Positions 20,658 through 61,549 of a stretch of 64,000 nucleotides of DNA are shown here, piece after piece. The notes beneath the pieces are model-generated. The model had not been told where the DNA came from. It saw only the letters and a list, made by a program, of their open reading frames with translations, and made no database searches. The stretch comes from Buxus sempervirens. Its lineage: Eukaryota > Streptophyta > Magnoliopsida > Buxales > Buxaceae. Each line of letters begins with the position of its first letter. The stretch's first letter is position 1. The DNA lies in assembly GCA_947561395.2 (NCBI GenBank), contig OX387183.1:30492853-30556852 (forward strand), in the 5' to 3' direction. Both the position numbers and the translations under genes were made by a program.

Positions 20658-20663
20658 ATACAT

Positions 20664-21080
20664 CAAAAGCTTCTCACCCGAGATAGGCTAGCCAAATGGG
20701 GTGTAGCCCACCAGAAATCCTGTGTTTTTTGCAGGAGGGAGAACGAGACTATCAACCACCTCCTCTTCTCTTGCTCTTACAGTAAGGGTATATGGCAGCA
20801 AGTACTATCTTGGAATTGCTACTTGTATCAACCCAGATTGTGGCTTGAAACAGTGGAGTGGGCACATGCTTCTTTTGTGGGGAAGGATCCAATCTTAAAA
20901 ATTGCAAGAGTCTCATTGGGAGCTGTCGTTTATCACATATGGTTGGAAAGAAACAGGCAAGTGTTCAAGAATAGCTACCTGCTACCTGAAGTTATCATTG
21001 AAAAAATAAGGTGGGATACTCAAGCTAGGCTTGCCAATCAGGAGCTGGTGATTAAAGACACACCAAGAAGTAGACAAGTA
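20664..21080 (+). pseudogene. LINE C zf-RVT domain, first part
   Basis: Starts at HQKLLTRDRLAKWGV, includes CVFCRRENET with HLLFSC (CxxC...H...C zinc ligands) and YHIWLERNRQVF. It is open to the break after RSRQV. The frame resumes at 51051 with VNSWGLNWKFG and a TGA at 51084-51086. It is the tail of an ORF2 without endonuclease or RT. The open frame continuing past 21080 belongs to D and is a chance fusion. Confidence 0.85.
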
Positions 21081-21082
21081 TC

Positions 21083-21808
21083 TTGTTATCTCATGAGCTA
21101 CTTCACAATTATCATGTTGCATGCAATAAAGAGAAGGTTGCTGTTAAGGTTGATTTAAGGAAAGCTTATGACACAGTCTCCTGGAGATGCATTCTATCAA
21201 TCCTTCATGGGATGAATTTTCCAAGCATGTTTATCAATTGGATTGAACAGTGTATATCTACCCCGAGGTTCTCTTTATTAATAAATGGGAGTATGGTTGG
21301 ATTCTTTTCAAGTGCTAGGGGGGTTCGCCAAGGAGATCCAATTTCTCCATATTTGTTTGTGCTGACAATGGAGTTGTTCAATATGCTCATCAAGGAGGAG
21401 ACGAAAGTAGGGTTTACACATCATGCTAGATGTGAGCAACAAGATATTACACATCTGTGCTTCGCGGATGACCTGCTTATGTTTGCACAAGCCGATTCTT
21501 CATCCATTCAGTGTCTCAAGGCAGCATTACTGAGGTTGAATAGCTTGGCGGGTCTCCAGGTGAATAGTGAGAAGAGTAGCATCTTTGTGAGTGGAGTGGG
21601 GGAGGAGAAGAAACTTGAGATTGCCAATCAGTTGGGGTTTCAGTTAGCGCAGTTACCTATACGATACTTGGGACTCCCCCTAATTTCCACCAGATTAACA
21701 GCAAAAGATTGTGAGCCGCTGATTATGAGTGTCAAGTCGAAGACACAATCGTGGAAAGGAAGGGCGTTATCATATGCAGGGAGGATGACATTGGTAAAGA
21801 CAGTGCTG
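21083..21808 (+). pseudogene. LINE D reverse transcriptase segment
   Basis: About 242 codons of RT starting at LSHELLHNYH. Visible motifs: KVDLRKAYDTVSW (motif A, catalytic Asp present), GVRQGDPISPYLF, and FADD at 21471-21482 (motif C, both Asp present), then LPIRYLGLPL and LSYAGRMTLVKTVL. It carries no stop. N-terminal endonuclease and the fingers part of RT are missing through 5' truncation, and the frame is cut by F. Confidence 0.88.
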
Positions 21809-21855
21809 CGGAGGATGACATTGGTAAAGACAGTGCAGGGAGGATGACATTGGTA
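21781..21855 (+). repeat. Templated triplication at the 5' junction of LINE F
   Basis: GAGGATGACATTGGTAAAGACAGTGC occurs at 21781-21806, again at 21811-21836, and in part (GAGGATGACATTGGTA) at 21840-21855. The first copy is D's own coding sequence. The next two lie between D and the first base of F, so they are filler copied from the adjacent target during insertion. Confidence 0.88.
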
Positions 21856-21857
21856 GT

Positions 21858-22450
21858 GACCAGTTTGTGCATTGCTTTGTGGAGATACTCAACAAGCATG
21901 TGAACTGTTACCTTACAGTTGTTTATGGTGCAAATGATGCCGCTGAGCGGAGGCTATTGTGGAGACAGCTTCCCTTACTTGCTCCTACACAACCATGGAT
22001 ACTCATGGGTGACTTTAACTGCGTGCGATCTGCTTCAGAAAAGTTAGGGGGTAAAGAGATCAACCATGTTGCCACTGACGAGTTTAATGCGTGCATTGAT
22101 GAATGTGAAGTTGTTGAGCTCAAATCTAAAGGGTTATTTTATACATGGGCGAACCAAAGTGAGGGGCAAAGGCGTATCACATGCAGGTTGGATCGTGCTC
22201 TTGTCAATCTACCTTGGCACCACGCCATGTGCCCATCTGAAGTGCAAATCATGAATCCGGGCATATCTGATCACTCTCCATTGCTGGTATCAATTTTCTC
22301 TGATTGGAAGCAAGGTAAGAAGCCATTTAGATTCTTTAATTTTTGGGCTCAAAGGCCGGACTTCCTTCCTTTGGTTGAGGAAGCTTGGAAAGTAGAAGTG
22401 TTTGGCTCCCCAATGTTTCGAATTTCTAAGAAGCTTCAAGAAGTCAAGCT
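21858..22450 (+). pseudogene. LINE F ORF2, endonuclease C-terminal part
   Basis: The frame opens DQFVHCFVEI and includes VVYGANDAAERR, the catalytic-site motif GDFNCVRS, then KSKGLFYTWANQ, DRALVN and SDHSP, all conserved in the AP-endonuclease domain of L1 ORF2. The first ~80 residues (WNIRGLND, ETK) are missing by 5' truncation. It is open until LINE E's T-run at 22452, after KKLQEVK. Confidence 0.9.
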
Positions 22451-22568
22451 TTTTTTTTTTTTGGAATGTAAGGAGTTCGTATAGTATAAATGAGAAACTA
22501 TTTACAAGTACAGGAGTCTGACACGGCTCACATCAAAACAGAAAAAACAACCCTAAGGCATATAGTGC

Positions 22569-25500
22569 TTAGGTTACAAAAACTGGATTGATTCTCCAAT
22601 TAGCACATATTTCTCTGTTTTCCGGAGTGTCTTTTACACGCTCCTCTATGTGAGAGTGCCGCATGCTAACATCAGACACAATGAGCTGAATAATTTCCTC
22701 ATGTGGTAATGCATTGTTCTGGAATAGGCGTCTGTTCCTTTCTCTCCAAATATGGTAGACCACAGCTGCCATAGATACCTTTTTTATCCTCACTGGTAAG
22801 GATTTACCCTTCAAATTTTGGGAGGCCCACTGTATCTCATCCTCCCAACTAATGTGTTGTCTTCTAATGCAATTTAACCTCTGTATACTTTCCCATATTG
22901 TTCTTGATATCCGGCAAGAGAAAAAAAGATGATTCAGGTCCTCTACATGTGCTCTACAAAAAACACAATTTGAGGCCTGCAGGATATTCAGGTTAAGAAG
23001 AAGGCTCTGGGTGAGCAACCTTCCATGGAATGCCAACCAAAGTATAAAAGCTTGCCGCGGAATATTCTGATTAAACCACACAACATCATTCCAACTTACC
23101 TTCGGTGCTCTGGTACGCAAGTTCTCATAAGCTTCTTTGATGCTATACTCTCCTGATTTTGCTGGTTTCCACGTAATACTATCCAATTGGTTCTGATCAG
23201 GTCCTGGTAGCATGCTCAGATAGCTCCAAAGTTCCTGGAGTTCATGTGTAAGAGCCACTGGTGGGTTCCATGAGTTATCTTGGATAATCTCAGACACTCT
23301 TGAATGTAGAGGAAGACCTGTATCATACATTATCCTTCTACCATACTTCTGAAATAATGACCCCAAGGGGTGCCAATGGTCTAGCCAAAGCCATGTGTTC
23401 ACTCCATTCCGAACCTTGTAGTGCACTTGCTGGAAAAGTCTTGTTCTTTGCTTCAAGATCTTCCTCCAAATCCATGATGCTTTGACCGGAACCGGACAAC
23501 TCCAGATATTCCTACCTCTTAAAAGGTATGAGTTGGTCCACTCAACCCACAAAGATGCTTCTCCCTTAATAATACGCCACAAATGTTGAGTGATTGCCGC
23601 TTGGTTCCACTGCTGTAAATTAAGAATACCCAGTCCTCCTTCCTCTTTTGGTGAACAAATCCTTGCCTAGCTAATAGGGTTTATCTTCTTCCTTAGATCA
23701 GGACCAGCCCAAAAAAAACTTCTACAAAGGCTTTCAATTTCAGTAACAATCTTCTTTGGAAGTTGAAAGCTTGTCAACCAATACACAGCCGATGAGAACA
23801 ACATTGATTTGATGAGTTGAGTTCTACCTGCATATGACAGAAATCTTGCTTTCCAGCCTTGGATCTTTGCCTTAATCTTCAAAACAAGTGGCTCACAGTC
23901 CCTAGGTCTTAACCTAGATGTGATCAGTGGCAATCCCAAATACTTTATAGGTAGTGAGCCCAAAGGAATCTGAAATCTACTAGTAACCTGATCCTTCACG
24001 TCTTGGTCCATCGCACATGGGAACAGCATGCTTTTCTCCACATTCATATTGAGCCCTGTTATAGCAGCAAACTCATTCAAACTTTCAAAAATACAATTCA
24101 GTGATTGAACGTCTCCTTTAGAAAAGATCACCAAATCGTCGGCAAAACATAGTGCTTTGATATCTTGCTTTTTACATCTTGGGTGATAGCTGAATCCTTG
24201 TTGAGATTTCTTGCATAGGATACCCATCAAAAGCTCCATTATCAACACGAACAGATATGGCGACATCGGATCTCCTTGCCTTAGTCCTTTTGTGCCTTTA
24301 AAGAAACCCACCAGCGTACCATTCATATTCAATGAGTAAGAAGTAGTTGATACACACTCCATCACCCACCCAATGAACTTCCCCGGTATATTCATAGCTG
24401 CCATCAACAATGGGAGTACTTCCCAGTTCACCGAGTCATAAGCTTTCATTATATCCACCTTGATAGTGCTTCGTGGCTTCCCCTTCTGAAGGTGGTAATC
24501 ATGAACTAATTCTTGAGTGAGCATCACATTGTCTGAAATTTTCCTTCCAGGAATAAAAGCACTTTGTTGAGGACCCACCAGGTCACCTACTAGGTTCTTT
24601 AACCTGTTTGCAATGATTTTCGATATGCACTTATATATGGTATTCACACAAGATATAGGTCGGTAATCAGTTACCTTTGATGGGTTTTCGCACTTAGGCA
24701 CCAAGGTAAGCACAGTAGCATTTGATTGTTTAAGAAGCTTGGTAGAGATGAAGAAACTCTTGATAGCCCTTATGACATCCTGCCCTACCACATTCCATGC
24801 ACACTTGAACATCTTGGGAGTAAACCCATCAGGTCCAGGTGCCTTATCGTCTTTCAAACTGAACATGGTCTTCCTTATTTCCTCATCAGCTACTTCAGCA
24901 TTGAGCTCCTCCCTTTGGCTTTCAGAGATTCTCCTATGTATAAAGTTTTCCAACTCTCTTGAACTTCCTTGCCAATTTAGTTTTGTACCCCCCAAGGTTT
25001 CCTTGTAGTGCTGCTCAAATCTAACCTTAATCCTGTCCCAGTCAGTGACTTTGGTGCCATCCTCCTCATAGAGACTAACAATTCTGTTATGCTCCTGTCT
25101 CCCTACCAAGGACTTGTAGAAGAATTCAGTGTTAGCATCACCCAGCTTGAGCCATTGAATGCGAGACTTCTGTCTCAACTGTGCTTCGACATTCCTGGAC
25201 TTCTCTGCAAGTTTAGTCCTAAGCTCACTCTCATTTCTGAGCAGCTCCTGATTTAAAGGGTCAGCAAATAACTTCTCTTGACATTTCTGGAGTTGAAGCC
25301 TGCACTCATAGACTTGGGCTTCAAGGTTCTGAAATTTTCCTCTACTCCATTCCTTTAACTTCATCTTTAGATTCTTTAGCTTCTTATATAGGCAGTACAT
25401 AGGCTGACCTTCCACTTGGATGCCCCAAGCGTCCTTCACAATATCAATGAACTCACTGTGATCAGTCCAGAAATTGAAGAATTTGAACGGTTTTGGACCT

Positions 25501-26216
25501 TTGGACAAAGAATTAGTAACTGTGATTACCGCCGGGCTATGATCAGATATGTTTGGAGCAAGAAAATCCACCTCAGAACCTGCAAATTGGTGCATCCACT
25601 CATGATTTACCATGACTCTATCCATCTTACATTGTATTCTTCTATCACCTTCTGATCTATTGCTCCACGTGTATAAAAAGCCTTTACTCTTCAATTCAAG
25701 GAGCATACACTCGTCAATGAATCTGTTAAAATCCATAACAGCAGCTTCATGGATTGGTCTACCCCCTACTTTCTCATTAGAATTCCTTACACAGTTGAAA
25801 TCACCTACTACAATCCAAGGGCAGTTCGGAATTAATGCTTTCAGGTCATGCCACAGCGTTTTACGAAGCTCATATCCATTAGCTCCATACACAAAAGAGG
25901 CCACACACTGCTGATCTGTAGCCTTGAGGACAACTTGACAATGGATGACCTGATCAGAATTAAAGATTCTCTTAATATCAATTGTAATCGGGTTCCAACA
26001 TACCCACAGTCTTCCTTTTAAAGCACATGAATAGTTATCAATAGAGTTCCACCTAGGACAAATGGATGAGAGAATTAAGTTCTTGTTAATCTGCCGCACC
26101 TTTGTTTCTATAAGGCAAACCACATTCAGGTCATATCTATGAATTAAATCCTTCACTTCGTATCTTTTTGCGGGGTCATTCAACCCCCTGATGTTCCAGA
26201 CCCCCCACTTAATCAT
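22569..26216 (-). pseudogene. LINE E ORF2: endonuclease, RT, zf-RVT; one stop
   Basis: About 1215 codons. The N-terminal endonuclease starts MIKWGVWNIRGLNDPAK with ETK (Glu37), GDFNCVRN near 25800 and SDHSP. A linker (EKSRNVEAQLRQKSRIQWL) leads to RT: KAPGPDGF near 24830, YRPISCVNT, SAFIPGRK, KVDIMKAYDSVNW, GLRQGDPMSPYLF and FADD near 24140. zf-RVT follows with CVFCRAHVED...HLFFSC near 22950. The single defect is TAG at 23667-23669 in NPIS-W-ARICSPKEEGGLG, where Trp is expected. The start ATG lies inside the ORF1 end (ATGATTAA overlap), suggesting translation by termination and reinitiation. Confidence 0.93.
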
Positions 26217-27679
26217 GGATCTTAAGTGGTATGTTCTTCATCTTCTGCACAGCAGAAATCTCAGCTCCTTTGGAGTATGCTTTCCCTTTGGCTGCCTTCA
26301 TTTCAACTTCATCCACAAGGATACCCTTCTTCTTCTTTTTCCTACTTCTCTTACCTTCACTACCTGAGGATTCCAACACCTCCTCACTAGTGTGATTCTC
26401 CAGAACTGAAAATCTGGTTGGGCTCTCAATCCCAGATAGACTTCCTTGACATAGCCCGGCCACTGCAGGATCAGAATTATTCTGTATTTGTACCCTTTCA
26501 TTCTCCACTACATTATCCACATCAGGCACCTCCGAACATTCTTCCACTCTAGGTTCTGTAGTTGCCACAGTAGGCATCTCTACCGCCCTATCCACAAGCC
26601 ATATCCCTTGTAGGTTCGTTTGGTATTGTTCCTTCATGTTCAGCATTATCATTCCTACCCACGACTGAAAGGTTCCCTGAAGTGTTGTTCACATGCTCCG
26701 AGATAGATGGGCGTAGATCAGCATCTATGTCCACCCTTTTCCCTGTTGGTTTCCAGACTTGAGTGGGTGCCTTGGGGCACTTTGCTAACCCATGTCCAAA
26801 TACTTTGCAATTTGTGCAGCATAGAGGCTTCCACAGGTACTCCACTTCGATTTCCAACACTTTCTCTGCAGACTTAAGAAGAAGCTTTCCAGGTAGTTCA
26901 CTCCCAGCTTCAATTTCAACACACACCTTAGCATAGCTGATACGAGTCCTCTTTTCTGTGTTTTCATCCATAAACAATGGAACTCCTACACCACTAGCAA
27001 TATGTCCAATGCCTTTAACAGTCCAGAATTCTAAAGGGATATTAAACATCTTGATCCATATTGGGATTTTCTTGAGCTCAGACTTGATAAATTGCATTCC
27101 AGGTTGCCACTCCTTCAACACCATTAACCGACCACCTATATGCCAAGGGCCTGCCTCAAGCACTCTGTGCTTCATCTGAACATCAGAGAACCTGAAAATG
27201 AGGAATCCTTCATCATTTGTATTGGTTTCCACAGAGCTGCCCCATATCTTTCCCACAATTGACTTTACCACAGCAAAAGGCACTTTCCTATCGATAAAGT
27301 GACCAACAAGACATCCCTCCCAAGACTTTATGCCTTCTTCCACCACCTCCGTCGAGGGAGAGATGACCGGCACTCCATCAGAGAAAGATGGGGCAAAGAA
27401 CTCTAGCTTTGATCTGGCGAACGCCTTATCTACAAACAACGTATTCCACTGTCTAGTGGAAGAGAAGCCTCTCTTTGCAGCGAGCGAACCTGCAGTATTA
27501 TCCTTTTGCTGATAGTCACTCCCGCTCCCCACCATTAAACCACTCGGGTTAACGTTCTGGCTCGGGTTGGGGTTGGCCTCAAAAGCATATCCAGGATCCG
27601 GGTGAGAAGAAGCATTTTCGGTTTGGCCCGGGTGAGCAATTGGCGGAAAATTTGAATTTGAAAGGTCAAAACCAGACAT
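26209..27679 (-). pseudogene. LINE E ORF1: DUF4283-type RNA-binding protein, frameshifted
   Basis: Starts MSGFDLSNSNFPP at 27679. The central region (WEGCLVGHFIDRK, GPWHIGGRLMVLKEWQPGM, KKIPIWIKMFNIPLEFW, GVPLFMDENTEKRTRISYAKVCVEIE) is the DUF4283 domain of plant LINE ORF1. It is followed by the zinc knuckle CTNCKVFGHGLAKC (CxxCx4Hx4C). A frameshift between about 26650 and 26590 moves the acidic and basic C-terminus (SRKKKKKGILVDEVEMK) into another frame, ending TAA at 26209. ORF1 binds the element's RNA; its loss would disable the copy in cis. Confidence 0.9.
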
Positions 27680-28640
27680 GGTTTTGATGGATCAGAAAAC
27701 CATCACACCTGACTGCAAACCCGGCCAAAAAACCACCTCCAACAACCAACACGAACCTTCACTTGCTCAGGCAATGAACTGCCTTGCTCCACGATCACTC
27801 CAAAAAACTATGCTCCACCTCTGCAAACAGTATCTCCACGACCTCCTCCGAAAACCACGAATGCAGCACGAACACAAACCGGAACCTTCGAGCAGAGCTT
27901 GGAACCTCACGAACAGAAAGCCTCACGACCAGATCCAGATCCAGATGCTCACGACCAGATCCAGATGATCAGGACCAGATCCAGGCTCAAAAAGCCTTGC
28001 AGCGAGACTTACTTGCTCACGGAACCTTGATACCTCCTCAAAGCTCCCAGAGAACTTGCTTCAAACGTACTAGAAACTTGCTACACTCAAAACGAATCAC
28101 TGCCCGAGCTTCAACTCCTTGGATGCACCACGAGCCCGGAACGCCAGAAACTCAGACCTCCATGACGAGCCAAAACACCTGCTCCGCACTCAGAACCTTG
28201 CTCCTCACATCCACGACAATGACGACCTCACAGCCCAGAGCATGCACGACCACGAGCAACACACCACGAACCACGAACAAGCACTCCAGAACCAAGAAAG
28301 CCACGGTCGGCAGTATGCCGGCGAGAGCCCTCCCAAGTCGCCCTAGCTCCAAGTCACCCTCCAAAGAATGTTAACAAAGGCTTGCAAACAGTGAAGGACA
28401 CGAACAGTGGTGGTCACGAACAGCACCTTCGAAATAGCATGGGAAAACTTGGAATGCCCACGAACAGTATAGAAACTCCCCACGAATAATAAATCCACGA
28501 ACAATAATAAGGAATAGACAATCCACGAACAATAATAAAACCACGAACAATAAAGGAATCCCACGAAAAGAAACGCCACAAGCAGAACAAGACGAAGCAC
28601 TCCCACGAATAAGAGATCCCCACAGACAAGAATCCCCAAG
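27680..28640 (-). promoter_or_regulatory. LINE E 5' UTR with TTCGTGG-type repeats
   Basis: Non-coding, about 960 bp. On the minus strand it is full of TTCGTGG and ATTGTTCGTGG words (plus strand CCACGAACAATAATAA at 28495-28550). The same words fill the 5' UTRs of G, I, M and S. By analogy with other L1 elements this region should hold the internal promoter. I see no TATA box I would trust. Open frames on the plus strand at 27678-28374 are antisense by-products. Confidence 0.6.
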
Positions 28641-28653
28641 AGAAGTCAAGCTT

Positions 28654-30427
28654 AAACTCAAGGAATGGAGCACTCGACTGAATTTTGCTCAAATCTCATC
28701 TCATGTCCATCATGCTAGGCTGCGTCTTGAACAGGTCCAGAAGCAATTGCATGATGAACCCCAAAATACCACCCTTGCTCAACTCCAGACCTCACTAAGG
28801 CAGCAACTTTACCACTTATTAAGATGTGAGGAATCTCAACTCAGAGAAAAGTCAAGGGTTCAATGGTTGGCAGAAGGTGATAGCAACTCCACTTTCTTTC
28901 ATAATGCCTTAAAATCAAGAAGAGCCCTTAATAATTTTTCCAGCATTTTCACTGAAGAAGGCCACAAGTTGACCAAGCAAAAGGATGTTTCGGATCACAT
29001 TGTCAAGCACTTTTAAGACAACTTGGGTACAGTTGAGAATTGTCACCTTGATGGCATGCCTTCCTTTTCCACATGTCTTACCCAAGATCAGAAATGCCAG
29101 CTTGAGGAGGAGGTTACTCGTGAAGAAGTTAAAGCCACGATTTTCTCATTAAAAGATGATAAGGCTCCTGGCCCTGACGGCTTTACACCTCACTTCTTCA
29201 AGAGGTGCTGGGATATTGTGGGTGAGGACACACTGGAAGCGGTGCTAAGTTTTTTCAAAGATGGATCCTTGCTGAAACAGTGGAATACCACAGCTATTTC
29301 CCTTGTGCCAAAATGTTCCAGCCCAAGTAAGGTCTCCGACTATAGGCCTATTTCATGTGTCAATACTCTTTACAAGTGCATTTCAAAAATCATTGCAAAT
29401 AGGCTCAAAAGAATTGTTGGTGATATTGTTGGAAATTACCAGTCAGCTTTCATCCCAGGGCGGGGTATCTCTGAGAATGTGCTTCTTGCCCATGAATTAT
29501 TACATAACTATCACCTGCATGGTCCTCATAGAAAATGTGCTCTCAAAGTGGACATTCGTAAAGCTTTCGACTCGATCTCATGGGATTGCATTAGGGAGAT
29601 GCTGCATGTCTTACAATTCCCAAGTAAGTTTGTTCGCTGGATAATGGAGTGTGTAACTACTCCAACTTTTTGAGTGATGATAAATGGTTCTCTCTGCGGT
29701 TTCTTTAAGGGAGCTAAAGGGCTACGGCAGGGTGATCCTATGTCTCCATACCTTTTTGTGCTGGTGATGGAGATTTTTCATATGATACTGCAGCGAAACA
29801 CTACCCATGGCTTTACTTATCACTACAGATGTGAGGCCATAGGCCTTAAGTTGCTATGCTTTGCAGATGATCTATTTATGTTCTCTAAGGCTGACATTTC
29901 CTCCTTGCAGTGCATTCTCAACTCCCTCCATGAGTTCCAACAACTCACGGGGCTTCATTTAAACAAGCAGAAGAGTTCCATATATCTCAGCGGTGTGGAC
30001 CATGCCATGAAAATTGAGCTTGGTACATTCACAGGAATTCCTCATGGAGATCTGCCTGTTAGGTATCTTGGACTCCCTCTCTTTACTTCCAAGCTATCAA
30101 GGAGAGATTGTGAGCTCCTCATTAACCAGGTTAAGTCCAAGGCTCAATCTTGGAAGGGACGTTGCCTCTCCTATGCGGGTAAGCTTACTCTCATTAAAGC
30201 TGTCTTGTTCTCTATCAAGGTTCATTGGCTCTCTTCTTTCATCATCCCTAAAGGAGTTATTATAGAATTGGAAAAGATTGCCGGGAGGTTTCTTTGGTCG
30301 GGACCTGATCTCAAACGGAAAATGAACCCCATTAGCTGGAAAATCATTTGTGCTCCAAAAAAGGAGGGTGGCCTTGGGTTACTCCACTTGAGTACATGGA
30401 ATAAAGCAGCAACGATGAAGCATATAT
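28654..30427 (+). pseudogene. LINE F ORF2, linker and reverse transcriptase
   Basis: Continues from 22450 with LKEWSTRLNFAQ and EKSRVQWLAEGDSNSTFF, then KAPGPDGFTPHFF (29161), YRPISCVNTLYKCISKI, SAFIPGRGI, KVDIRKAFDSISW, GLRQGDPMSPYLF, FADD at 29870-29881 and YLGLPLFTSKLS. Stops at 29014-29016 (TAA, where relatives have Gln) and 29671-29673 (TGA, where relatives have Ser) break it. The RT active site is otherwise intact. G interrupts it after TMKHI. Confidence 0.9.
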
Positions 30428-38178: not shown

Positions 38179-38194
38179 AGGATGGTAAATTGCT

Positions 38195-40369: not shown

Positions 40370-40592
40370 CATCCCCTGTATCTCTTTAATGTATTGTGTC
40401 ATTATGACATAGTCTGGTGGTATAGCCTAGGACAAGGTATATTTGTATCCCATGGTTAAGAGGTGGTTGTGTCTTTTGGTTACCTTAGTGTGTATGGGGT
40501 ATCCTTGGTGCTGCTTGAACCTTTTGTAATTATTTCTCTTTATTAATATACTTGGGACTTAACTTCCAAAAAAAAAACGATGAAGCATATAT

Positions 40593-41602
40593 GGAAAATT
40601 TTGGTTGATGGCAGCTCCCTTTGGGTTAGATGGGTACACAGGTATCTTATTAAAGACCGGAATTTCTGGACTTTAAGTGTGCCTACTAACTCTTCATGGG
40701 CATGGAGGAAGATTCTCAAGTTGTGGTATGGAATGGCCCACCTAATTAAAAAGAAGATCTATAATGGTTTGAGCACCTCCTTGTGGTATGATAATTGGCA
40801 TCCGGTGGGGCCACTTTTCAGTAAGTATGGTAATCGGTTGATCTATGACTCTGGTCTCACACGTCATGCTATGGTTAGCAGCATAATCTCTGGTTATACA
40901 TGGGATCCACCTGTAGCAGCATCTCCAGATTTAATTGAAGTCTGGAGTAGGCTTGATGAGCTGCCACACCCATCACCTGAACAAGACGATGTTGTAGTGT
41001 GGACTCCTTCAAATTCAGGTACTTTTGACATATCTAGTGCTTATAAGCACTTCGATACACATAGGAGCCAAGTGGCTTGGTATGGACTCATATGGTTCTC
41101 TAAACACATCCCTAAACATGCTTTTATATTGTGGCTCGCTGTGAATCAAAGGTTGCTAACCAAGGACCGGTTGCATAATAAGGGTATTGTTAACAACCCT
41201 TCGTGCGTGTTCTGTAGAGCACGTGACGAGTCTCACTCACACTTATTCTTTGAGTGTACTTACAGTGCCCATGTGTGGAACCGTGTTTTGGAGAATAATG
41301 GAGTCGCAAGGCTACATCATACTTGGGTGGATGTTGTGCAATGGGCTGCATCCTTGAAGCTGGGTAGCCCACATGCCACCCTCATTTTCAAGCTCTCTTT
41401 TGCAGCAAGTGTCTACCACATCTGGAGGGAAAGAAACAGAAGAGTATTCAGAAATTGTTATATGCCATGGGAAGATTTGGGGTCGCTAATCGCTTTGGAT
41501 GTTAGAGGGAAAGCAAACTTGAAGCATGTGGCTCTACCTGACTCCCCCCTCCACCGCCATCTTGTTGATAGGTGGGACTTAGAGTGGGATCTTGTAAGGT
41601 GA
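40593..41602 (+). pseudogene. LINE F ORF2, zf-RVT domain
   Basis: The third piece resumes WKILVDGSSLWVRW and runs uninterrupted to the TGA at 41602: WYDNWHPVGPL, IYDSGLTRHA, then CVFCRARDES...HLFFEC (zinc ligands) and YHIWRERNRRVF. The 3' UTR at 41603-41745 carries ATTGTACAT and CTTACCTTCC before the poly(A). Confidence 0.9.
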
Positions 41603-41765
41603 TGATTGGGTAACCTTGTATTCTCTTGTGCTCTTGTGTGTTTTTGTCATGTGCCCTGATACATTAAGGAGCACATTGGGTTGTCTTGTTTGATTTGCCA
41701 TTGTACATATCTTTTTTCAATATTATCACTTTGGACTTACCTTCCAAAAAAAAAAAAAAGTGCTG

Positions 41766-41887
41766 TTTGGCATTCAAGTTTATTGGCTTTCGGTCTTCAG
41801 TCTTCCTAAGAAGGTGCTTAATGAGCTGGAGAAAATATGCAGAGACTTCTTATGGGCAGGTCCAGAAATGAAGAGGAAGATCATTCC
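41766..41887 (+). pseudogene. LINE D RT C-terminal continuation
   Basis: Directly after F's poly(A), the frame reads FGIQVYWLSVFSLPKKVL, EKICRDFLWAGP and KRKIIP. This is the block that follows LSYAGRMTLVKTVL in every related copy here. It stops at the T-run of LINE I. Confidence 0.85.
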
Positions 41888-42063
41888 TTTTTTTTTTTTT
41901 TTTGGAAAGTAAGTTTTCCATTAGTAAAGGGAGCTGCTTTACAAGACCAAGGTGGGCATACCCACCTAAAACAATGAAACAAATTACATTAAAACAACCC
42001 TACTGGGAACAATGGCTATCTCATTAGAAATGCTACTACAAACATAAACCCAAAACAAAGTAA

Positions 42064-45000
42064 TTACGGTGCACGGTGGGAGATGATCCCCTCAAGTCCC
42101 CAATGAGATGCAAGCTCCCTGTTGTTGGGCGTATCAATGATAGTAAAGCTGGCAGAGCATAGCTTGAGATTGATATCACGAATAATAAGTGTCATTAAGT
42201 TATCCTGCGAAAGATAGTTGTTGGTGAAGACCCTTCTATTTCTCTCACACCAAATATGGTAAATGACTGCTGCCATAGAAAGCTTGAGAAGGGTTGATGA
42301 GAAACCTTTACCAGCCGCCTTGCGTTGCACCCAGTCGATTGTGTCCTTCCATGACCTATTAGATAGCCTGATGCAATTTTTAGAGAGTACATCCTTTCAA
42401 ATTCTCTTGGTGTAGACACATGCAAAAAAGAGGTGGTCATGGGTCTCCACATCCCTTCTACAGAACATACAAGTAGCTTGGTTGATAGCTCCCCATTTGA
42501 GTAACCTTTCCTTAGTTAACAACTTTTCATGGATAGCTAACCAGAGGAGGAAAGAGTGTTTCGGGATAGGTAGGTGGTGCCAAACCAATGAGTACCAAGG
42601 AACGTCGGGTTTAACCTCAAGAAGAGAGGTGTAGGCAGAGAGCATTGTAAACATACCCGATTTTGATGGTAACCATGTTGTTTGATCATCTCTTGAACTG
42701 TCCAAACCGGGTAGATCTTGAAGTCTTTGCCAAGCTTCAATAAGGTCCATGGATCTAGATAAGGGCACATCCCAATCGTTGCCACTGATAATTGCTTCCA
42801 CTTTGGCATTTACTGGAAGCCCGGAGTCATAAATGAGTCGTTCACCATAAGCAACCACCAATGGGCCAACCGGATGCCAGTTATCATACCATAGAGAAGT
42901 ACAGCGGCCATTGAAAACCCTCTTCTTAATAAGTGCATTTGCTGTTGGTCTTATTTTCAATATTTTCTTCCAAGCCCATGAAGAGTGAGATGGAGGGTTA
43001 ATAGCCCAGAAACTTCGGTCCTTGATGAGGTTAATGTGGACCCAATTAGTCCATAAGTTTTGAGCTCCGGTTGTAATCATCCAGCAGTACCTTAACATGG
43101 CAGCTTTGTTCCAAGTGCATAGCTTGAAGAGACCAAGTCCACCATCCTTATAAGGTGAGCATGCTATTTCCCACTTGATGGGAATAATCTTCTTTCTCAT
43201 GTCGGGTCCTTTCCAAAGAAAATTTCTGCAAAGCTTTTCAAGCTCTCTAATAACCTTCATTGGGAGCATGAAAGCCGATAACCAATAAATCTTGATGGAG
43301 AAGAGGACAGATTTCACCAAGGCAAGGCGGCCAGCATAGGAGAGGTGGCGCCCCTTCCAAGCTTGAGTAGTAGCAGCAATCCGGTTAAGAAGGGGCTCAC
43401 ACTCCGTAGGAGTCAATTTCGAAGATACCAATGGCAACCCCAAGTAGGTAGCTGGTAGAGCGCCAAGAGAGAAACCCGAGCATGAGGATAGAGCTTGCTT
43501 CAACTGGCTGTCAGTACCACTAACATACATTAATGTCTTGCTTTTGTTGACATGAAGACCTGAAATAAGCTGGAATTTGCACAAAGCATCAGAGAAGCAA
43601 TTAATGGAGTTGCAATCGGCCTTGGAAAATAGAAAGAGGTCATCAGCGAAGCATAGAGAGGAGATGCCTAGTTTCTTGCACTTGGCATGGAAGGAAAACC
43701 CTTGCAGCGTGCTATGCTTCAAGATCATAGTAAAATAACTCCATAACAAGAACAAAAAGGTAAGGCTGTCGGATCGCCTTTCCTAAGGCCGCGGGAACTT
43801 TGGTAGAAACCAAATAAGCTTCCATTAATGAGCAAAGAGAATGATGGTGTAGATATGCACTCCATTATCCACTTGGTGAAGCTTTGTGGGAAATTCATGT
43901 GACACAAGATGGAAGAAATACAGCCCCATTCCACCATGTCAAAAGCTTTCCTCAAGTCCACCTTAATTGCACAGTTTGCAACACCAGACCGAAGATGGTA
44001 GCCATGTAACAACTCATGCGTAAGCAAAACATTGTCCATAATACTCCTTCCCGGGATAAAGGCAGTTTGGTTGTCCCCCACAAGGTCACCAATGACATGC
44101 TTGAACCTGTTTGCCAAAATTTTCGATATGCATTTATAAACTGTATTGACACATGAAATCGGTCTGAAGTCGCATACCTTAGAAGGGTTAAGGCACTTAG
44201 GGACAAGAGTAATAGAAGAGTGATTCAGTTGCTTGAGGAGCTTGCCCGAACTGAAGAAACTCAATATGGCTTTCACTGTATCTGTGCCCACAATGGACCA
44301 TGCTTTTTTAACGAAAGCGGGTGTGAAGCCATCAGGCCCAGGGGACTTATCATCTTTGAGTTGGAACATAGTGGCCTTAACCTCATCCGCAGTGATGTCG
44401 TCTTCAAGTGCTTGGGCTTGGTCAGGTCGGAGCTTCCTCTCGAAGGGGGGGGAGATCATCAGACTGAGGGTTAATTGTTGTGCCCATCAACACCCTAAAG
44501 TGGTTCAAGAACTCGTCTTTGATGAGCTGTTGGTCAGTTATCTTGGAACCATCTTCAGTGTATAAACTTAGCACTCGGTTTCTGGCCCTCCTTGAGAGAA
44601 GAGAACTATGGAAAAAACCAGTGTTAGAGTCACCTTCTTTTAACCACTGGACTCGGGATTTTTGCCTTATCTGTGCTTCCTCATCCCTGATTGCATGCGC
44701 CAACTGTGACCGAAGGTCTCTCTCTTGTCGCGCTAACCCAACATCCGTAGGATGAGAAAAACATTCCTTTTGGCAAGAAGCAAGGTCAGATCGGATGCTT
44801 TGGATTTTTGAAGCCATATCAGAGAACTTTTTAGCTCTACTCCACGCCTTCAGTCTAACCTTTAAGAGCCTCAGTTTCTTTGCAAGAATGAACATTGGGG
44901 TTCCCACCACTGTAGAAGACCAAACCTCAGCAACAGTCGGTAGGAAATCATCATGAGTAGTCCAATAATTGAAGAATCTGAATGGTTTGTTCAGGATTTG

Positions 45001-45711
45001 ACCTTGAGGAAAGATAGAGATCACCACCGGCGAGTGATCCGAAATACCAGGAGCCAAGAATTCCGCCTCCGACCAGTTAAACTCCTGCAACCATTCTTGG
45101 TTAACTAGTGCTCTATCAAGCTTGCATGAGATATTTCTATCACCTTCACTACGGTTGGACCATGAGAGAGTAAGCCCTTTGAACTTCAAGTCAACACATC
45201 CACAGTCATCGACAAAGCTATTGAAATCATGAGTTGCCTGTAGGTTTATATGCTTACCTCCTTGCTTTTCTGAACTGCTCCTAACAAAGTTAAAATTTCC
45301 CATCATCAGCCACGGAGCATTAGGTGAGAGTGCATACAGATCTCGCCACATGTGGCGTCTTTCCTTGAAGTCATTTTGGCCATAAACAAAGGAAACAAAA
45401 CAAGCCTTTTGCAAGTGAATGATCTCCAACCAGCAATGAATGTATTGATCTGAAATGGAAATAGTGGTTAGTTTAACCTCCTTATGGTTGAAAAGGACCC
45501 ATATACGCCCCTTCAAGGCACTAGAGTAGTTTGCAAACATCTCCCATTGGGGGCAAATCAGATTCTTGACAACAGTAGCATTAACCGCTCTTACTTTTGT
45601 TTCGACAAGGCACAAAACCTGAAGCTGTTGTGATGCAATGAAGTTTCTAACTTCATAATGTTTGGCAGGATCATTAAGACCCCGTATGTTCCACGAGGCT
45701 AGCTTAATCAT
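42064..45711 (-). pseudogene. LINE I ORF2 with three frameshifts and a stop
   Basis: Starts MIKLASWNIRGLNDPAK in an ATGA overlap with ORF1. Endonuclease: ETK, GNFNFVRS (relatives GDFNCVRS, so a catalytic-motif Asp is Asn here) and SDHSPVV. Linker KSRVQWLKEGDSNTGFF. A C8 run at 44446-44453 causes the first frameshift. RT follows with KSPGPDGFTPAF, AFIPGRSI and KVDLRKAFDMVEW. Two more shifts lie near 43770 and 43735 around the GDP-PYLF block. FADD is near 43640. TGA at 42397 replaces Trp before the final zf-RVT part (CMFCRRDVET...HLFFAC). Clearly inactive. Confidence 0.9.
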
Positions 45712-47665
45712 GGAGAATGCTTGGACACCATATCCCCCTGGGAAGGTCCCAAATTCAGCACCTTCCCAGACGTTCTTGCATGTCTCATGGCAAATTCATC
45801 AACTAGCAATTTCTTTTTACCTTTTTTCCTTTGTTTCTTTCGAGAAGAGCTCCCGTCATCAACATTTTGAGGCGTGTCAGCAAGGATGCCAAACCTATTT
45901 GGGGAGTCCAATGAAAGGGTTGGGAGGGCCATCTCATGCTTACTTGCGGCTGCTTCATGCACCAAGTCCTCATGAGTTGTTTCCTGCATCAAGTCCTCAT
46001 GAGCTGCTTCATGAACCAAGTCCTCGTGATCTGGAATTCCAACTGGGCTAGGGGGCGAGTGGTGGGTGTCAATGGGAGCCTTTTCCTTCCTTCTGTGATT
46101 TATAGATGTCCAACCATTCGAACCAATCGCATCCTTGCTACCATAAGTAAACATGGAACCATTCGAGTCCGAGATGCTATCATGTGGAATACGAGCATGA
46201 GTATCCACTACAGCAACATTTGCAGTTATACTTGAAGCATGCGCACCCGAGGCGTTTGTTATTCCACTCAAAGCATGTGAATCCAAGGCAGTTGTTATTC
46301 CACTCAAAGCATTTGCACGAGGTGTGTGATTAGCTTGGTCACATGTCGTGGGCGCAAGGCTCGGATCCGTAGTATCCTCTATAGGTATTGTCTTACCCGA
46401 TGGTTGCCACACTTGGGAGGTGACTTTCCGGGGACACTTGGTAGATGAGTGACCAAATACTGCACATGAAGAGCAAGCTAGTGGTTTCCACATGTACTCA
46501 ACTCGTATTTCAGTGAGCTCGTTATCTCCCATTTGTAGCATGAGTTTCTCAGGAAAATTACATTGGTGGTCGATTTCAACACAAACTTTGGCAAAGCTCA
46601 ACCGTGATCTAGATTCAGTGGCTTCATCCATGAACAATGGACGCCCAATACCGCTAGCTACGTAGCTCATTCCTCTAGGAGTCCAGTACTCAAGAGGGAG
46701 ATTGAACAGTTTGATCCAAACTGGTAGTTTACCAAGCTCAGCTTTGGCAAATGTCATTCGGGGTTGCCATTCTCTCAGAACAAATAGGCGACCAGCAAGG
46801 TGCCATGGCCCAGCTTCAAGCACTTTGTTCCTCATCTGTGGGTTACTGAACCGAAATAAGAAGAAGCCGTCTTCATTAATGGAGGTTTCCACCGTGCCTC
46901 CTTTGCCCCACAGCTTGGAGACAATACCTTTGACTGCTGCAAATGGGAGTTTTTTGTCGATAAAATAGCCAACAAGGCAGCCTTCCCAAATTTTCAGACC
47001 TTCTTCAGCTACCTCAGGAGGAGGTTGGATGATAAGCTGTCCATCGGAGGAAGAAGAGGGCTGGATATAGTCAAGCTTTGCCTTACTATGCATGGACGTG
47101 GAGAAGAGGTCAGACCAGGCCAAAGCAGGCTTGGTGGGGCCAGGTGGTGCAGGAGCAAGGGACTGGCCAAGTGGAGCAACCGGGTGCATGTCCAAGCTAG
47201 AGGCCGGGTCAAAACAGGTGGTCCAGACGGGCCATTGGAACCAGATGGAGCATTGGTTTCTGATGGGCCATTGGAACCAGATGGAGCATTGTTTCCGGAC
47301 GGGCCATTGGAACCAGAGGTGGGTGGAGCACTGTCTCCAAGTGAGCTAGGGAGGTCGTGGAAGCCAACACCAAGCAGAGAAGCCGCTTCAGAACTAGGGC
47401 CTGCTGTGGCAGGCAGATGAGGAGGCAGAAGGTTGGCACTGCTGCTGGTAAGAGCCGCTTCAGAACCAGGGCCTGCAAGAGGTAGGTAGGTGGACTTACC
47501 GCAATGGGTAGTAGCAGCAGGGACAGAATATGATGGGGTGGATGTAGGACCCAAAATAGGCATGGTTGTGTTTGGCGCTGGCAGAGATGCAGCACCAACC
47601 TTGGAAGCACGAAAACCAGGGCCAAGCAATGGCAGCGCTGGAAAACTGCTCAAGTCGTCGGCCAT
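45708..47665 (-). pseudogene. LINE I ORF1 with internal 12-residue repeats; frameshifted
   Basis: Starts MADDLSSFPALPL at 47665. The N-terminal half is rich in Pro, Ser and Ala and holds three copies of a 12-residue unit of type NGPSGSNAPSGS (36-bp DNA unit, 47220-47330). A one-base shift near 47210-47225 separates it from the rest (LDMHPVAPLGQ onward), which has the DUF4283-like region (WEGCLVGYFIDKK, GPWHLAGRLFVLREWQPRM, KLPVWIKLFNLPLEYW), the knuckle CSSCAVFGHSSTKC and the Lys-rich tail KKQRKKGKKKLLVDEFAMR. It ends TGA at 45708, overlapping ORF2. Confidence 0.88.
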
Positions 47666-48185
47666 GGTTAACTTCTGAACTCAACAAACCGGCAGCGACC
47701 GGACCATGCACACGGGAAGCTCCAACAGAAGCCCGAACCAGGAATGGACAGAAAAATCCACGGTCGGGAGAAGCACAACTGGTGCAGACGAAATAGTAAC
47801 GATGCTCACGAACAGACCCCGAAAATCCCACAAACCTTGAACTGGACACAGATGCTGTTCACGAACAATCACGAAGCGCCAACTGAACTTAGGTCCCACG
47901 GCCAAGAAGCACCGACTGAACTTGATACCACGGACGGGATAACCACAACTGCTACAGACGAAACAGTCCAGAAACAATCACGAAGGCGCGAGCCTTGTTT
48001 GCCGCTCACAAGAGCCACGAGCCTTGAGCGGCACCAGCACGAACAGATTCAGGAACCCACGAACTAATTTCCCGAAGCCACTACAATGCTCCCGATCAAT
48101 AAGTCATGAACAAGAAAACCCAGTAGTCACGACCAATGCCAACGATGCTCACGAACCATGCACAGGAAATGCGCTCCACGTACAG
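47666..48185 (-). promoter_or_regulatory. LINE I 5' UTR
   Basis: Non-coding leader of about 520 bp, dotted with TTCGTGA and CCGTGG words on the minus strand (CACGAAC on the plus strand at 47815, 47855, 48040 and 48145), as in the other leaders. It ends abruptly against coding sequence of fragment K. Confidence 0.55.
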
Positions 48186-48660
48186 TCAACCCCCAATCAG
48201 TCCCGACGAACCTGCATACCTGTTCTCGAGCCATTCAATACACCTAGGCCACGATCGAGTAACCTGCGGAGCTCCATTCAAGTGAAGAAGACCATGCCAA
48301 ATTGCTTCACTATACTCACATTCAAAGAAGAGATGGTGTTGCGTTTCATTCTGCTGCCTACAGAGAATACACACTGCCGATTGGATTACCCCCCATTCAA
48401 ATAGTTGATTCTTGGTTAGGAGCCTACCTCTAATTGCCATCCATGAGATGAAGGAGTGCCTTGGGATTGCCATGCTATGCCATATTAATTTGTGCCACTT
48501 AACCTGGTGTCCACTCCCGCCAAGTGCCTTATATGCACTCTTCATACTAAATATTCCTGATTGAGCTAGAACCCATACCACTTGGTCATTCTTATGAGGA
48601 GCCTACCTCTAATTGCCATCCATGAGATGAAGGAGTGCCTTGGGATTGCCATGCTATGCA
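48186..48660 (-). mobile_element. LINE fragment K (zf-RVT piece with internal duplication)
   Basis: A minus-strand piece of zf-RVT: NDQVVWVLAQSGIFSMKSAYKAL, MAIPRHSFISWMAIRGRLLTKNQL, CILCRQQNET...HLFFEC. It has neither a 5' part nor a 3' UTR. The 62 bp at 48418-48480 (GGAGCCTACC to GCTATG) are repeated at 48598-48660, so the order is block, upstream part, block again. K is in the same orientation as I and touches I's 5' end. I infer that it was added by template switching at the end of I's synthesis. Confidence 0.7.
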
Positions 48661-48898
48661 TAGCAAGGTACAAGTCCGGAATAATCCTTGTGATATCCAC
48701 ATTCTTAACAATTGGGATTTGCATGTTTTAGCACCCACGGTGCCACAAAGGTAATGGTCGATGTTGGGGTTGTGATGTGAAGTTATGTGGATGAGTTTTT
48801 GATGTACGTGTATGTGTGTTGAGCATTGGCTCTGGTTGCGTGTACCTCAGTGTGGGGTAACGTCACTCTTTTGTACATTCTTTCCCTCTTTGAACGTT
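48661..48898 (+). pseudogene. Probable LINE D C-terminus and 3' UTR
   Basis: The + strand reads KVQVRNNPCDIHILNNWDLHVL and ends TAA near 48755, the usual zf-RVT ending, followed by a 3' UTR with TTTGTACATTC. Assignment to D rests on position (after I, before J) and on D's tail appearing after J at 51027. If right, the target lost about 1 kb when I inserted. It could instead be an independent truncated LINE. Confidence 0.55.
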
Positions 48899-48920
48899 AA
48901 GTAATAATATTAAATAAAAG

Positions 48921-51020
48921 AGGGCAAGGCATATGACTCCGTGAAGTGGAAGTGTATAAGAAGTATCCTAAGTGCGATGAGATTCCCCACAAGGTTTATA
49001 GAGTGGGTGATGGAATGCATATCCACCCCTTCCTTCTCATTAATGATTAATGGAGGCTTGAATGGTTTCTTTAAAGGAACTAATGGGATTAGACAAGGTG
49101 ACCCTCTCTCCCCGTATCTGTTTGTACTAGTCATGGAAATGTTCAACATGCAGATCAAGGAAGTAACGGAGGTTGACTTCAAGTTTCACCACAGATGCCA
49201 GCCTCAAAATATCAAAATGTTATGCTTTGCTGATGACTTGTTCTTGTTTTGCCATGGGGATATGATGTCACTGCAGTGTATGCTCCAAGGCCTTGGGAAA
49301 CTTGAGATGGCGGCAGGACTGAAAACCAACAAAGAAAAGAGTTCCATCTACTTTTGTGGGGTTGAGGAAGAAACAAAGTACTCAATGCTAGAAAGGTCAG
49401 GCCTTCTAGAAGGAGAACTTCCTGTAAGGTACCTGGGGCTTCCACTTGTGTCAACAAGGCTAGCTGCAAAAGACTGTGAACCCCTGATTAACCGAGTCCA
49501 AGCTAGGCTACAATCATGGAAATGCAGAAATTTGTCATATGCCGGGAGACTCTTACTTGTAAAATCGGTGCTCCAATCCATATGCCTTTTCTGGATATCT
49601 AATTTTATGCTCCCTAAGGGAGTATTGAAAGAAATTGACAAAATTTGTAGATGTTTTTTATGGACAGGGTCAAAGCACAAGAGGAAAATTGTCCCTGCGA
49701 GTTGGACTGCAGTTTGTGCCCCGAAAGAGGCTGGAGGATTGAACCTCTTCAGTATGTACGAATGGAACAAAGCTGCCATCTTCAAGCACATATGGAGAGT
49801 AGTGGCACATGAAGACGGCCTATGGACTGCATGGGTGCACAAATGGCTACTTAAAGGCCACAACTTCTGGGCGATTAGTATCCCTTCTTCATGTTCATGG
49901 GCATGGAGAAAGATCTTGAGAAACCGTGCTCACGCACGCCCGTTTGTAAAGCATAGTGTTCACAATGGGAAGAGTACATCATTGTGGTATGATAATTGGC
50001 ATGTGGATGGTCCCCTTATTGGAAAATATGGGCAAAGAGCAATCTATGATTCTGGGCTTTCAAGAACAGCAATGGTTGAAGAGATTATTCACCAACAAGA
50101 TTGGGATCCACCTGTGGCAGTGTCAGCTGATTTGATTGAGATATGGAACAAGCTTGATCTTCTTCCAAAGCCAAATAGTAGCCTTGAAGACATCATCACA
50201 TGGAGTACTTCAAAATCTGGAAAGTTTGCAATGGGAGAAACGTACAGAGCACTACTTGGTCATAGGCCAGTTGTTGCATGGTCAAAGCTGGTTTGGTCCA
50301 ACCCTTGCATTCCGAGGCATTCCTTCATACTTTGGCTAGCAATCATGAATGGCCTTGCTACAGTAAACAAGCTTCATGAATGGGGCATTGTGAGGAGCAA
50401 CACATGTGTTCTTTGCAGGTTACAGGTGGAGACCATCCCACATCTTTTCTTTGAATGCACATATAGTTGGACGATATGGAAACAACTACTACAAAAGAAT
50501 GAAGTCACGGCACTGAACCGGCCTTGGGAGAGTCTCATTCAATGGGCAGCTCATCACTTTACAGGAAAAAGTCTAGCAAAAACTATTGCTAGAGTGTCAC
50601 TTGCAGCAAGTGTGTACCATATTTGGAAGGAGAGAAATAGACGAATATTTAAAGCAAGCTACTTGCCAGCACAAAAAGTCTACTCCTTGGTGATGGCCGA
50701 TATCAAGGATATGGGTGCAACACTTACTATCCAACCTACTGAGTACGACCGGGCAAGGAAAGTTTTGGAGAAGTGGGAGATAAGGTGGCATCCTTCCATG
50801 CATCATGCACGTGTTTAGTTTTGTTTAGTTTTTTTGTGTACTGTGTACTTTGTTTGTGGTATGGATCTTGGATCTCGGTTGGGGATACTTGATTGATTGA
50901 TGCTTAGGCTCCGACCATGAGGCGTCTGTTTGTCCAAGGTGGACTATTGTCACCTTGACGTACTATGTACATACTTTTTCCATTGAATGAATCACTTACT
51001 TACTTTCCAAAAAAAAAAAA
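48921..51020 (+). mobile_element. LINE J, 5'-truncated L1-type element
   Basis: Begins within the RT active-site block (GKAYDSVKW) and ends with CTTACTTACTTTCC and poly(A) at 51009-51020. AACGTT occurs at 48893-48898 and 51021-51026, a likely short target-site duplication, leaving about 22 bp of A/T-rich filler (48899-48920) at the 5' junction. It is of the same subfamily as P (shared GIRQGDPLSPYLFVLVMEMF and SIYFCGVEE). Confidence 0.85.
48923..50818 (+). CDS. LINE J ORF2 C-terminal part: RT palm to zf-RVT, uninterrupted
   Basis: About 630 codons without stop or frameshift. Visible: KAYDSVKW, STPSFSLMING, GIRQGDPLSPYLF, FADD near 49228, VRYLGLPLVSTRL and LSYAGRLLLVKSVL, then zf-RVT with WYDNWHVDGPL, CVLCRLQVET...HLFFEC near 50410 and YHIWKERNRRIF, ending at TAG 50818. 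The first catalytic Asp of RT and all upstream domains are missing, so no activity is expected. It lacks its natural start. Confidence 0.9.
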   Translation, partial: GKAYDSVKWKCIRSILSAMRFPTRFIEWVMECISTPSFSLMINGGLNGFFKGTNGIRQGDPLSPYLFVLVMEMFNMQIKEVTEVDFKFHHRCQPQNIKMLCFADDLFLFCHGDMMSLQCMLQGLGKLEMAAGLKTNKEKSSIYFCGVEEETKYSMLERSGLLEGELPVRYLGLPLVSTRLAAKDCEPLINRVQARLQSWKCRNLSYAGRLLLVKSVLQSICLFWISNFMLPKGVLKEIDKICRCFLWTGSKHKRKIVPASWTAVCAPKEAGGLNLFSMYEWNKAAIFKHIWRVVAHEDGLWTAWVHKWLLKGHNFWAISIPSSCSWAWRKILRNRAHARPFVKHSVHNGKSTSLWYDNWHVDGPLIGKYGQRAIYDSGLSRTAMVEEIIHQQDWDPPVAVSADLIEIWNKLDLLPKPNSSLEDIITWSTSKSGKFAMGETYRALLGHRPVVAWSKLVWSNPCIPRHSFILWLAIMNGLATVNKLHEWGIVRSNTCVLCRLQVETIPHLFFECTYSWTIWKQLLQKNEVTALNRPWESLIQWAAHHFTGKSLAKTIARVSLAASVYHIWKERNRRIFKASYLPAQKVYSLVMADIKDMGATLTIQPTEYDRARKVLEKWEIRWHPSMHHARV

Positions 51021-51050
51021 AACGTTCAAAAAAAAAGAAGTAGACAAGTA

Positions 51051-51086
51051 GTGAACTCCTGGGGGTTGAATTGGAAATTTGGGTGA
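51051..51086 (+). pseudogene. LINE C zf-RVT C-terminus, second part
   Basis: Twelve codons (VNSWGLNWKFG, stop) that complete the C-terminus interrupted at 21080. The NWGxNW-type ending is common to these LINEs. C's 3' UTR follows to 51212. Confidence 0.8.
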
Positions 51087-51212
51087 GTGTAGGTCACATA
51101 AGTTTGTCTTATTGATGCTTGTAACTGATTATCTGGTGTTATTTCTCATGTTTTTTTGTAGCTGATGCCTTGTGTTGGTTGCCTTGGGGGCTGTTTGAAC
51201 CTCCATTGTACA

Positions 51213-51337: not shown

Positions 51338-51347
51338 TTTTTTTTTT

Positions 51348-61547: not shown

Positions 61548-61549
61548 AT

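What the first reader, a model, noticed from the sequence alone, without database searches (positions are those of the whole stretch)
20658..51212. LINE-in-LINE nest resolved to six levels
Target-site duplications and reading-frame continuity order the insertions: LTR element 2 > C > D > F > G > H on the deepest path, with E also in F, and I and J also in D. Nesting of LTR elements is common in plants; a deep nest made almost wholly of L1-type LINEs is less usual and gives a relative time series of insertions in one locus.
Basis: partly seen in the sequence, partly recalled or inferred. Interest (0 to 1): 0.72.

Follow-up and report, generated by a model that had tools for sequence, protein, structure and literature searches.

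The report
LINE-in-LINE nest in putative plant centromere
A stack of LINE jumping genes, each inserted inside an older one, is real, and it lies in a stretch found once on each of 14 chromosome-sized pieces of this genome where such elements pile up, most likely the centromere.

Summary
The nest is real: five LINEs lie one inside another (C > D > F > G > H), with E also in F, and I and J also in D. Relatives without the insert show the empty site for D, F, E, G and H; their target duplications are 16, 6, 13, 16 and 16 bp. I has none: beyond it D is partly deleted and inverted. J's 5' side carries an inverted copy of D's end. The sixth level, an LTR element around C, is not shown. Identity to the closest relative found rises with depth: C 94.4%, D 98.6%, F about 99.1%, G and H about 99.7%. 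The larger point is location. In searches with six nest families, 236 of 246 hit rows fall in one interval per contig on 14 contigs that hold 98.5% of the assembly; these intervals with margins are 3.35% of it. RNase H-domain hits avoid them (1 of 150 inside). The LINEs are divergent, and 8 of 8 open ORF2s tested lack RNase H. Best reading: centromeres built largely of several centromere-restricted L1 families. Centromeric LINEs are known (poplar, sunflower, banana, others); CENH3 location could not be tested.

The parts
20656..21080 (+). LINE C, 5'-truncated, 3' part of ORF2 (left piece), ending in the target duplication 21065-21080
   Evidence: matches to 7 of 7 relatives start at 20656; 94.4% to L030 over 425 bp; ORF2 aa 1059-1200
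51035..51220 (+). LINE C, right piece: duplication 51035-51050, end of ORF2, 3' UTR, interrupted at about 51213 by another minus-strand LINE-like tail (K)
   Evidence: 6 of 6 relatives given join 21079 to 51035 with 15 bp overlap; poly-T of 9 at 51213
21081..51036 (+). LINE D with all that is nested in it; own pieces 21081-21808, 41760-41887, 48204-48599 (inverted), about 48597-48659 (repeat), 48658-48891, tail about 51023-51036
   Evidence: 726/738, 127/129, 390/396 and 233/234 letters identical to L038; positions
21809..41759 (+). LINE F with its inserts, in D; 5'-truncated; own pieces 21851-22451, 28641-30427, 40577-41759; the stretch before 21851 holds extra copies of about 30 bp of the target
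   Evidence: 9 of 9 relatives given show the empty site; array 21775-21855, period 30 x 2.8; closest copy about 99.1%
22452..28640 (-). LINE E in F; ORF1 with DUF4283 (26591-27691), ORF2 interrupted by one stop (22572-23666 and 23670-26237)
   Evidence: duplication 22439-22451 / 28641-28653; 13 bp overlap on 4 of 5 relatives, 10 bp on the fifth
30428..40576 (+). LINE G with its insert H, in F; ORF1 with DUF4283 (32107-33660), ORF2 pieces 33660-35134 and 38179-40351
   Evidence: duplication 30412-30427 / 40577-40592; closest copy about 99.7%
35135..38178 (-). LINE H in G, 5'-truncated, 975-codon open frame of ORF2 (35283-38207)
   Evidence: duplication 35119-35134 / 38179-38194 with empty site in L014; RVT_1 and zf-RVT; closest copy about 99.7%
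41888..48203 (-). LINE I in D; ORF1 with DUF4283 (45711-47345), ORF2 in several frames (42067-45795)
   Evidence: poly-T of 16 at 41888; no duplication
48204..48659 (-). rearranged D: inverted piece 48204-48599 and a repeat of about 63 bp
   Evidence: L038 2506-2111 and 2318-2230; L040 and L041 2292-2230 for the repeat
48925..51022 (+). LINE J in the 3' end of D, 5'-truncated (start approximate)
   Evidence: ORF2 aa 587-1205; poly-A of 14 at 51009; inverted D end 48889-48928; D tail resumes at about 51023

Best explanation
The nest samples a LINE-packed interval that occurs once on each of 14 chromosome-sized contigs and is most likely the centromere. Several divergent L1 families insert there by target-primed reverse transcription: endonuclease nick, reverse transcription from the poly-A end, frequent 5' truncation, and a duplication that is 13-16 bp in four of the five clean cases. 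Because the niche is already full of LINEs, new copies land in older LINEs and the nest deepens. Shown here: the insertions and their order, the clustering, the family diversity, and no RNase H in 8 of 8 open ORF2s tested. Inferred: that the intervals are functional (CENH3) centromeres, that the contigs are whole chromosomes, and that the restriction is targeting rather than loss elsewhere.
For: Junctions and empty sites. Tails. Domains. Clustering: of the 150 best RVT_1 hits 92 are L1-type by match length and 90 of these lie within 1 Mb of one point on each of 14 contigs holding 666.1 of 676.5 Mb, against 4 of 58 short, LTR-type hits. Family searches, rows inside the intervals with 0.5 Mb margins, the query's own place included: C 35 of 41, D 40 of 40, F 43 of 44, G 39 of 41, H 39 of 40, J 40 of 40 (tallied in 116, 132). 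Control: RNase H domain 1 of 150. Of the non-self copies printed at 98% or more for D, F, G, H and J, 32 of 32 lie in the intervals, which favours targeting over later loss. LINE-on-LINE is general: 16 of 20 LINEs with open ORF2 from 12 contigs have LINE coding sequence in the first kb of the 3' flank examined; LINE coding is 57% of those flanks and 58% of the window. Identity to the closest relative rises with depth.
Against: No CENH3, FISH, Hi-C or read data. The telomere search did not complete, so whole chromosomes are assumed from contig size. The intervals were drawn from the RVT_1 hits; the six family searches test them independently. Only the best 40 or 150 candidates are scored, so weak or old arm copies are under-counted. 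Outside the intervals: 6 C rows, 2 G rows, 1 F and 1 H row just beyond the C9 margin, and 2 of 92 L1-type RVT_1 hits. The closest copies of D, F, G and H are on the same contig, which would also fit local duplication.
Confidence: 0.83

Rival explanations
1. The LINEs insert anywhere but survive only in one gene-poor, poorly recombining block per chromosome, because arm copies are lost by selection or deletion.
For: Plausible for old copies; some diverged relatives do lie outside (C8:20086471 at 86%; C8:49084509 and C12:21188958 at 76%).
Against: The youngest copies show the same restriction: 32 of 32 non-self copies at 98% or more are in the intervals. Frames with an RNase H domain, some of L1 ORF2 size, are widespread in arms.
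Confidence: 0.12
2. The nest is an assembly artefact: mis-joined repeats.
For: A very repetitive region; no reads could be inspected.
Against: Mis-joins do not make matched 13-16 bp duplications with poly-A tails at four inserts, nor agree with uninterrupted relatives on several contigs; closest-relative identity also follows the order of the nest.
Confidence: 0.03
3. Copies spread among and within the intervals by segmental duplication or conversion rather than by retrotransposition.
For: The closest copies of D, F, G and H lie on the same contig C3.
Against: The inserts have poly-A tails and their own duplications at different sites; D's closest relative L038 carries neither F nor I at those sites, nor D's rearrangement.
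Confidence: 0.05

Closest known systems
Celine, centromeric L1 LINE of poplar (PMC11288735; abstract, Results parts 1-2 of 3, subsection on Celine-like LINEs, and Discussion read)
   Same: ORF1 with DUF4283, ORF2 with endonuclease and RT, no chromodomain; duplications of the same order (10-30 bp there); clusters in centromeres; copies nested in one another (one 46.5-kb read there held 9 copies).
   Different: Described as one family, about 15% of the core centromeric contigs in P. simonii, about 7% of copies nested in themselves and about 65% in LTR elements. Here many groups share the niche and LINE-in-LINE is the usual flank.
LINEs of Salicaceae centromeres (PMC12046899, passages) and of yellowhorn (PMC8647845, passages)
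   Same: LINEs enriched in centromeres; in P. euphratica a second LINE, TE_00000009, besides L1-1_PTr, so more than one centromeric LINE family in a species is already on record.
   Different: LINEs are 7.85-12.62% of the poplar centromeres and 4.2 of 23 Mb in yellowhorn; here 57-58% LINE coding in the DNA sampled, a biased sample.
HaCEN-LINE of sunflower (PMC4628103, passages) and Nanica of banana (PMC8423783, passages)
   Same: LINEs located in the centromeres of nearly all or all chromosomes.
   Different: Found there with a tandem repeat (sunflower) or with CRM elements and, on two chromosomes, 5S rDNA (banana); no long satellite array in this window.
Plant L1s with RNase H, Ta11 group (PMC5348765, passages; Smyshlyaev 2013 seen only in its reference list)
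   Same: Plant L1s; the RNase H lies at the C-terminal end of ORF2.
   Different: 8 of 8 open ORF2s from the intervals lack RVT_3, and RVT_3 hits avoid the intervals (1 of 150); whether those hits are LINEs was not checked.

Membership tests
L1-type LINE | ORF2 with endonuclease and reverse transcriptase | tested here: met
   8 of 8 open ORF2s from the intervals; E in the window
L1-type LINE | poly-A tail, target duplication, frequent 5' truncation | tested here: met
   tails at 7 of 7 inserts; duplications at 5 of 7, not clear at I and J; C, D, F, H and J truncated
Celine-like centromeric LINE (L1-CS subclade) | ORF1 with DUF4283, no chromodomain | tested here: met
   3 of 3 ORF1s scanned have DUF4283; no chromodomain listed in any protein scanned
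Celine-like centromeric LINE (L1-CS subclade) | RT tree places it in L1-CS | not tested
   no reference plant LINE sequences were at hand
Celine-like centromeric LINE (L1-CS subclade) | location in CENH3 chromatin | not testable with these tools
   proxy only: one interval on each of 14 contigs
Ta11-type plant L1 with RNase H | RNase H domain in ORF2 | tested here: not met
   no RVT_3 at E up to 0.1 in 8 of 8 open ORF2s
   left flank 19698-20546 matches L012 at 82%; no continuation found on the right; the genome search with this flank did not complete

The most novel reading that the evidence does not exclude
A whole radiation of L1 families without RNase H (about 14 groups below 75% identity, by my cut-off) is centromere-restricted in this genome, while L1s with RNase H are kept to the arms. 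The centromeres of all 14 chromosomes would then be made mostly of mutually nested LINEs without a dominant satellite, and centromere targeting would be an old property of a clade rather than of one recent family.
Probability: 0.4. Interest if true: 0.8.

Novelty: new variant of a known kind. Interest (0 to 1): 0.62.

Why it matters
How LINEs find centromeres is called unclear in the Celine paper (PMC11288735). Many divergent families sharing one niche, beside elements of the same genome that avoid it, would let shared protein features of targeting be separated from family history. Nests with five ordered layers give a relative clock of centromere growth that needs no mutation rate.

Tried and rejected
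Divergence from relatives as a clock was rejected: F differs from L020 by 8%, yet dN/dS is 0.12 and F's closest copy is about 99.1% identical. G against its broken relative in L014 gave 0.31, and the excess cannot be divided between the two copies.

Twin priming as the origin of D's inverted piece was rejected: the piece lies inside D beyond I, not at D's 5' end. An insertion-linked rearrangement fits better (inference).

Forsythia suspensa (14 chromosomes, 688.79 Mb) was considered as the source and set aside, since the passages read describe satellite centromeres (PMC11374533). The species is unknown, and that it is a plant is inferred from the LINE type. The passages seen of PMC12477314 added nothing.

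The LTR level was sought on the right without result. Never answered: closest relatives of E and I, the LTR-flank search, a DUF4283 census, the telomere pattern.

Literature: seven answered searches of an open-licence library. In their listings I saw no report of many LINE families sharing centromeres beyond the two in P. euphratica, nor of the RNase H contrast; subscription papers are mostly not covered.

'About 99.1%', 'about 99.7%' and 'about 98.7%' are inferred from bit scores (27, 9 and 18 bits below the self match); the tables print 99, 100 and 99. The 22 long RNase H frames and the 32 copies at 98% or more were counted by eye. Window coverage used a query panel that includes window ORFs.
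Full report
What was checked. LINE coding pieces were mapped by protein comparison, DNA was compared with relatives from the same genome, and junctions were read directly.

The nest. C is a plus-strand LINE cut at 20656. D sits in C (duplication 21065-21080 / 51035-51050), F in D (21803-21808 / 41760-41765), E on the minus strand and G on the plus strand in F (22439-22451 / 28641-28653 and 30412-30427 / 40577-40592), and H on the minus strand in G (35119-35134 / 38179-38194). Each of these five sites is seen uninterrupted in relatives: 6 of 6, 9 of 9, 5 of 5, 5 of 5 and 1 of 1 of those given to the call. One fetched relative of C (L031) was not given, because its match breaks off at 21069. I (minus) and J (plus) also sit in D. 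The order C > D > F > G > H is shown, five LINE levels deep.

Untidy junctions. F's 5' side carries extra copies of about 30 bp of its target. J's 5' side carries a 40-bp inverted copy of D's end. Beyond I, D lacks about 480 bp, runs inverted for 396 bp, repeats about 63 bp of that piece, lacks 146 bp and goes on. I read these as repair by template switching during or after insertion; that is inference.

The LTR level. The DNA left of C (19698-20546) resembles the start of L012 at 82%, nothing on the right continues it, and C's 3' UTR is cut at about 51213 by a further LINE-like tail. An enclosing LTR element is possible but not shown.

Order in time. The closest relative found is 94.4% for C (425 bp), 98.6% for D (1476 of 1497 bp), about 99.1% for F, about 99.7% for G and about 99.7% for H. 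J, in D, is about 98.7%. This follows the nest, with G and H equal. At the rate used in the Celine paper (1.3e-8 per site and year) D and its closest relative parted about 0.5 million years ago, and the inserts in D would be younger; this is arithmetic on one borrowed rate. Raw divergence from relatives with open ORF2 is no clock, since it is mostly synonymous (F 0.12, D 0.09; between such relatives of one family 0.08-0.26).

Location. Of the 150 best RVT_1 hits 92 are L1-type by match length; 90 of these lie within 1 Mb of a single point on each of 14 contigs, which hold 666.1 of 676.5 Mb. Of the 58 short, LTR-type hits 4 do. DNA searches with six nest families put 236 of 246 rows in these intervals (spans with 0.5 Mb margins, 3.35% of the genome): C 35 of 41, D 40 of 40, F 43 of 44, G 39 of 41, H 39 of 40, J 40 of 40, own places included. 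Each family reaches 11 to 14 of the 14 contigs. Non-self copies printed at 98% or more are all inside, 32 of 32.

RNase H contrast. The RVT_3 domain gave 1 of 150 inside the intervals. Of the 150, 22 lie in open frames of 1000 codons or more, the size of an L1 ORF2, and none of these is inside; I did not check them for an RT. Eight of eight open ORF2s from the intervals have endonuclease, RT and zf-RVT and no RVT_3.

Composition. The 3' flanks (3.1 kb each) of 20 LINEs with open ORF2 are 57% LINE coding, and 16 of 20 have it within the first kb examined; reversed flanks gave no hits. The window is 58% LINE coding: 10% in 1-20655, 83% in 20656-51212, 75% beyond; its own ORFs were in the query panel. 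No long satellite array lies in the window (periods up to 500). ORF2s from different intervals are mostly 45-66% identical between groups, while some are near-identical across contigs, such as L009 on C4 and L010 on C10 at 98.5%. In the RT tree E, G, H, I and J stand on their own deep branches (J beside a second J-like copy, P), F joins L018-L020 and L026, and D joins L022, L023 and L025; C was not in the tree.

Reading. One interval on each contig that makes up nearly all of the assembly is the pattern expected of centromeres, and published centromeric LINEs behave alike (PMC11288735, PMC12046899, PMC8647845, PMC4628103, PMC8423783). What seems new is the number of divergent groups sharing the niche and the high LINE share in the DNA sampled. 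CENH3 location and membership in the L1-CS subclade are untested.

Limits. Searches score only the best 40 or 150 candidates. Copies outside exist: 6 C rows, 2 G rows, 1 F and 1 H row just past the C9 margin, and 2 of 92 RVT_1 hits. E and I could not be searched. The LINE share is not from a random sample. Long reads were not available.

Noticed in passing
51213-64000: A second pile of LINEs right of the nest: a plus-strand LINE at about 52121-56983 followed by minus-strand LINE pieces, a J-like copy at 58985-60712 on the minus strand (76.7% to J), and a second ORF1 at 62899-64000 that is 82.5% like 52121-53195.
   Followed up: partly
9457-10209 and 18034-19173: Short tandem arrays in the non-LINE left part, with units such as AACACGAAATGGTTTC and GACGCCTTGCTCC; about 0.8 and 1.1 kb, too short for a typical centromeric satellite.
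   Followed up: no
1-20655: Mostly non-LINE repeat DNA similar to stretches beside LINEs on other contigs (L009, L010, L028), with weak direct repeats about 13-14 kb apart (4584-4662 / 17748-17822 and 5495-5864 / 19747-20114), perhaps an old LTR element.
   Followed up: partly
21775-21855: About 30 bp of the target repeated 2.8 times at the 5' junction of F.
   Followed up: partly
C8:20085062-20086832 (outside the window): A C-family piece outside the intervals lies about 1 kb from an RNase H hit.
   Followed up: no
C3 interval: The closest copies of D, F, G and H are all on the same contig, 100-300 kb from the nest, which hints at local spread.
   Followed up: no
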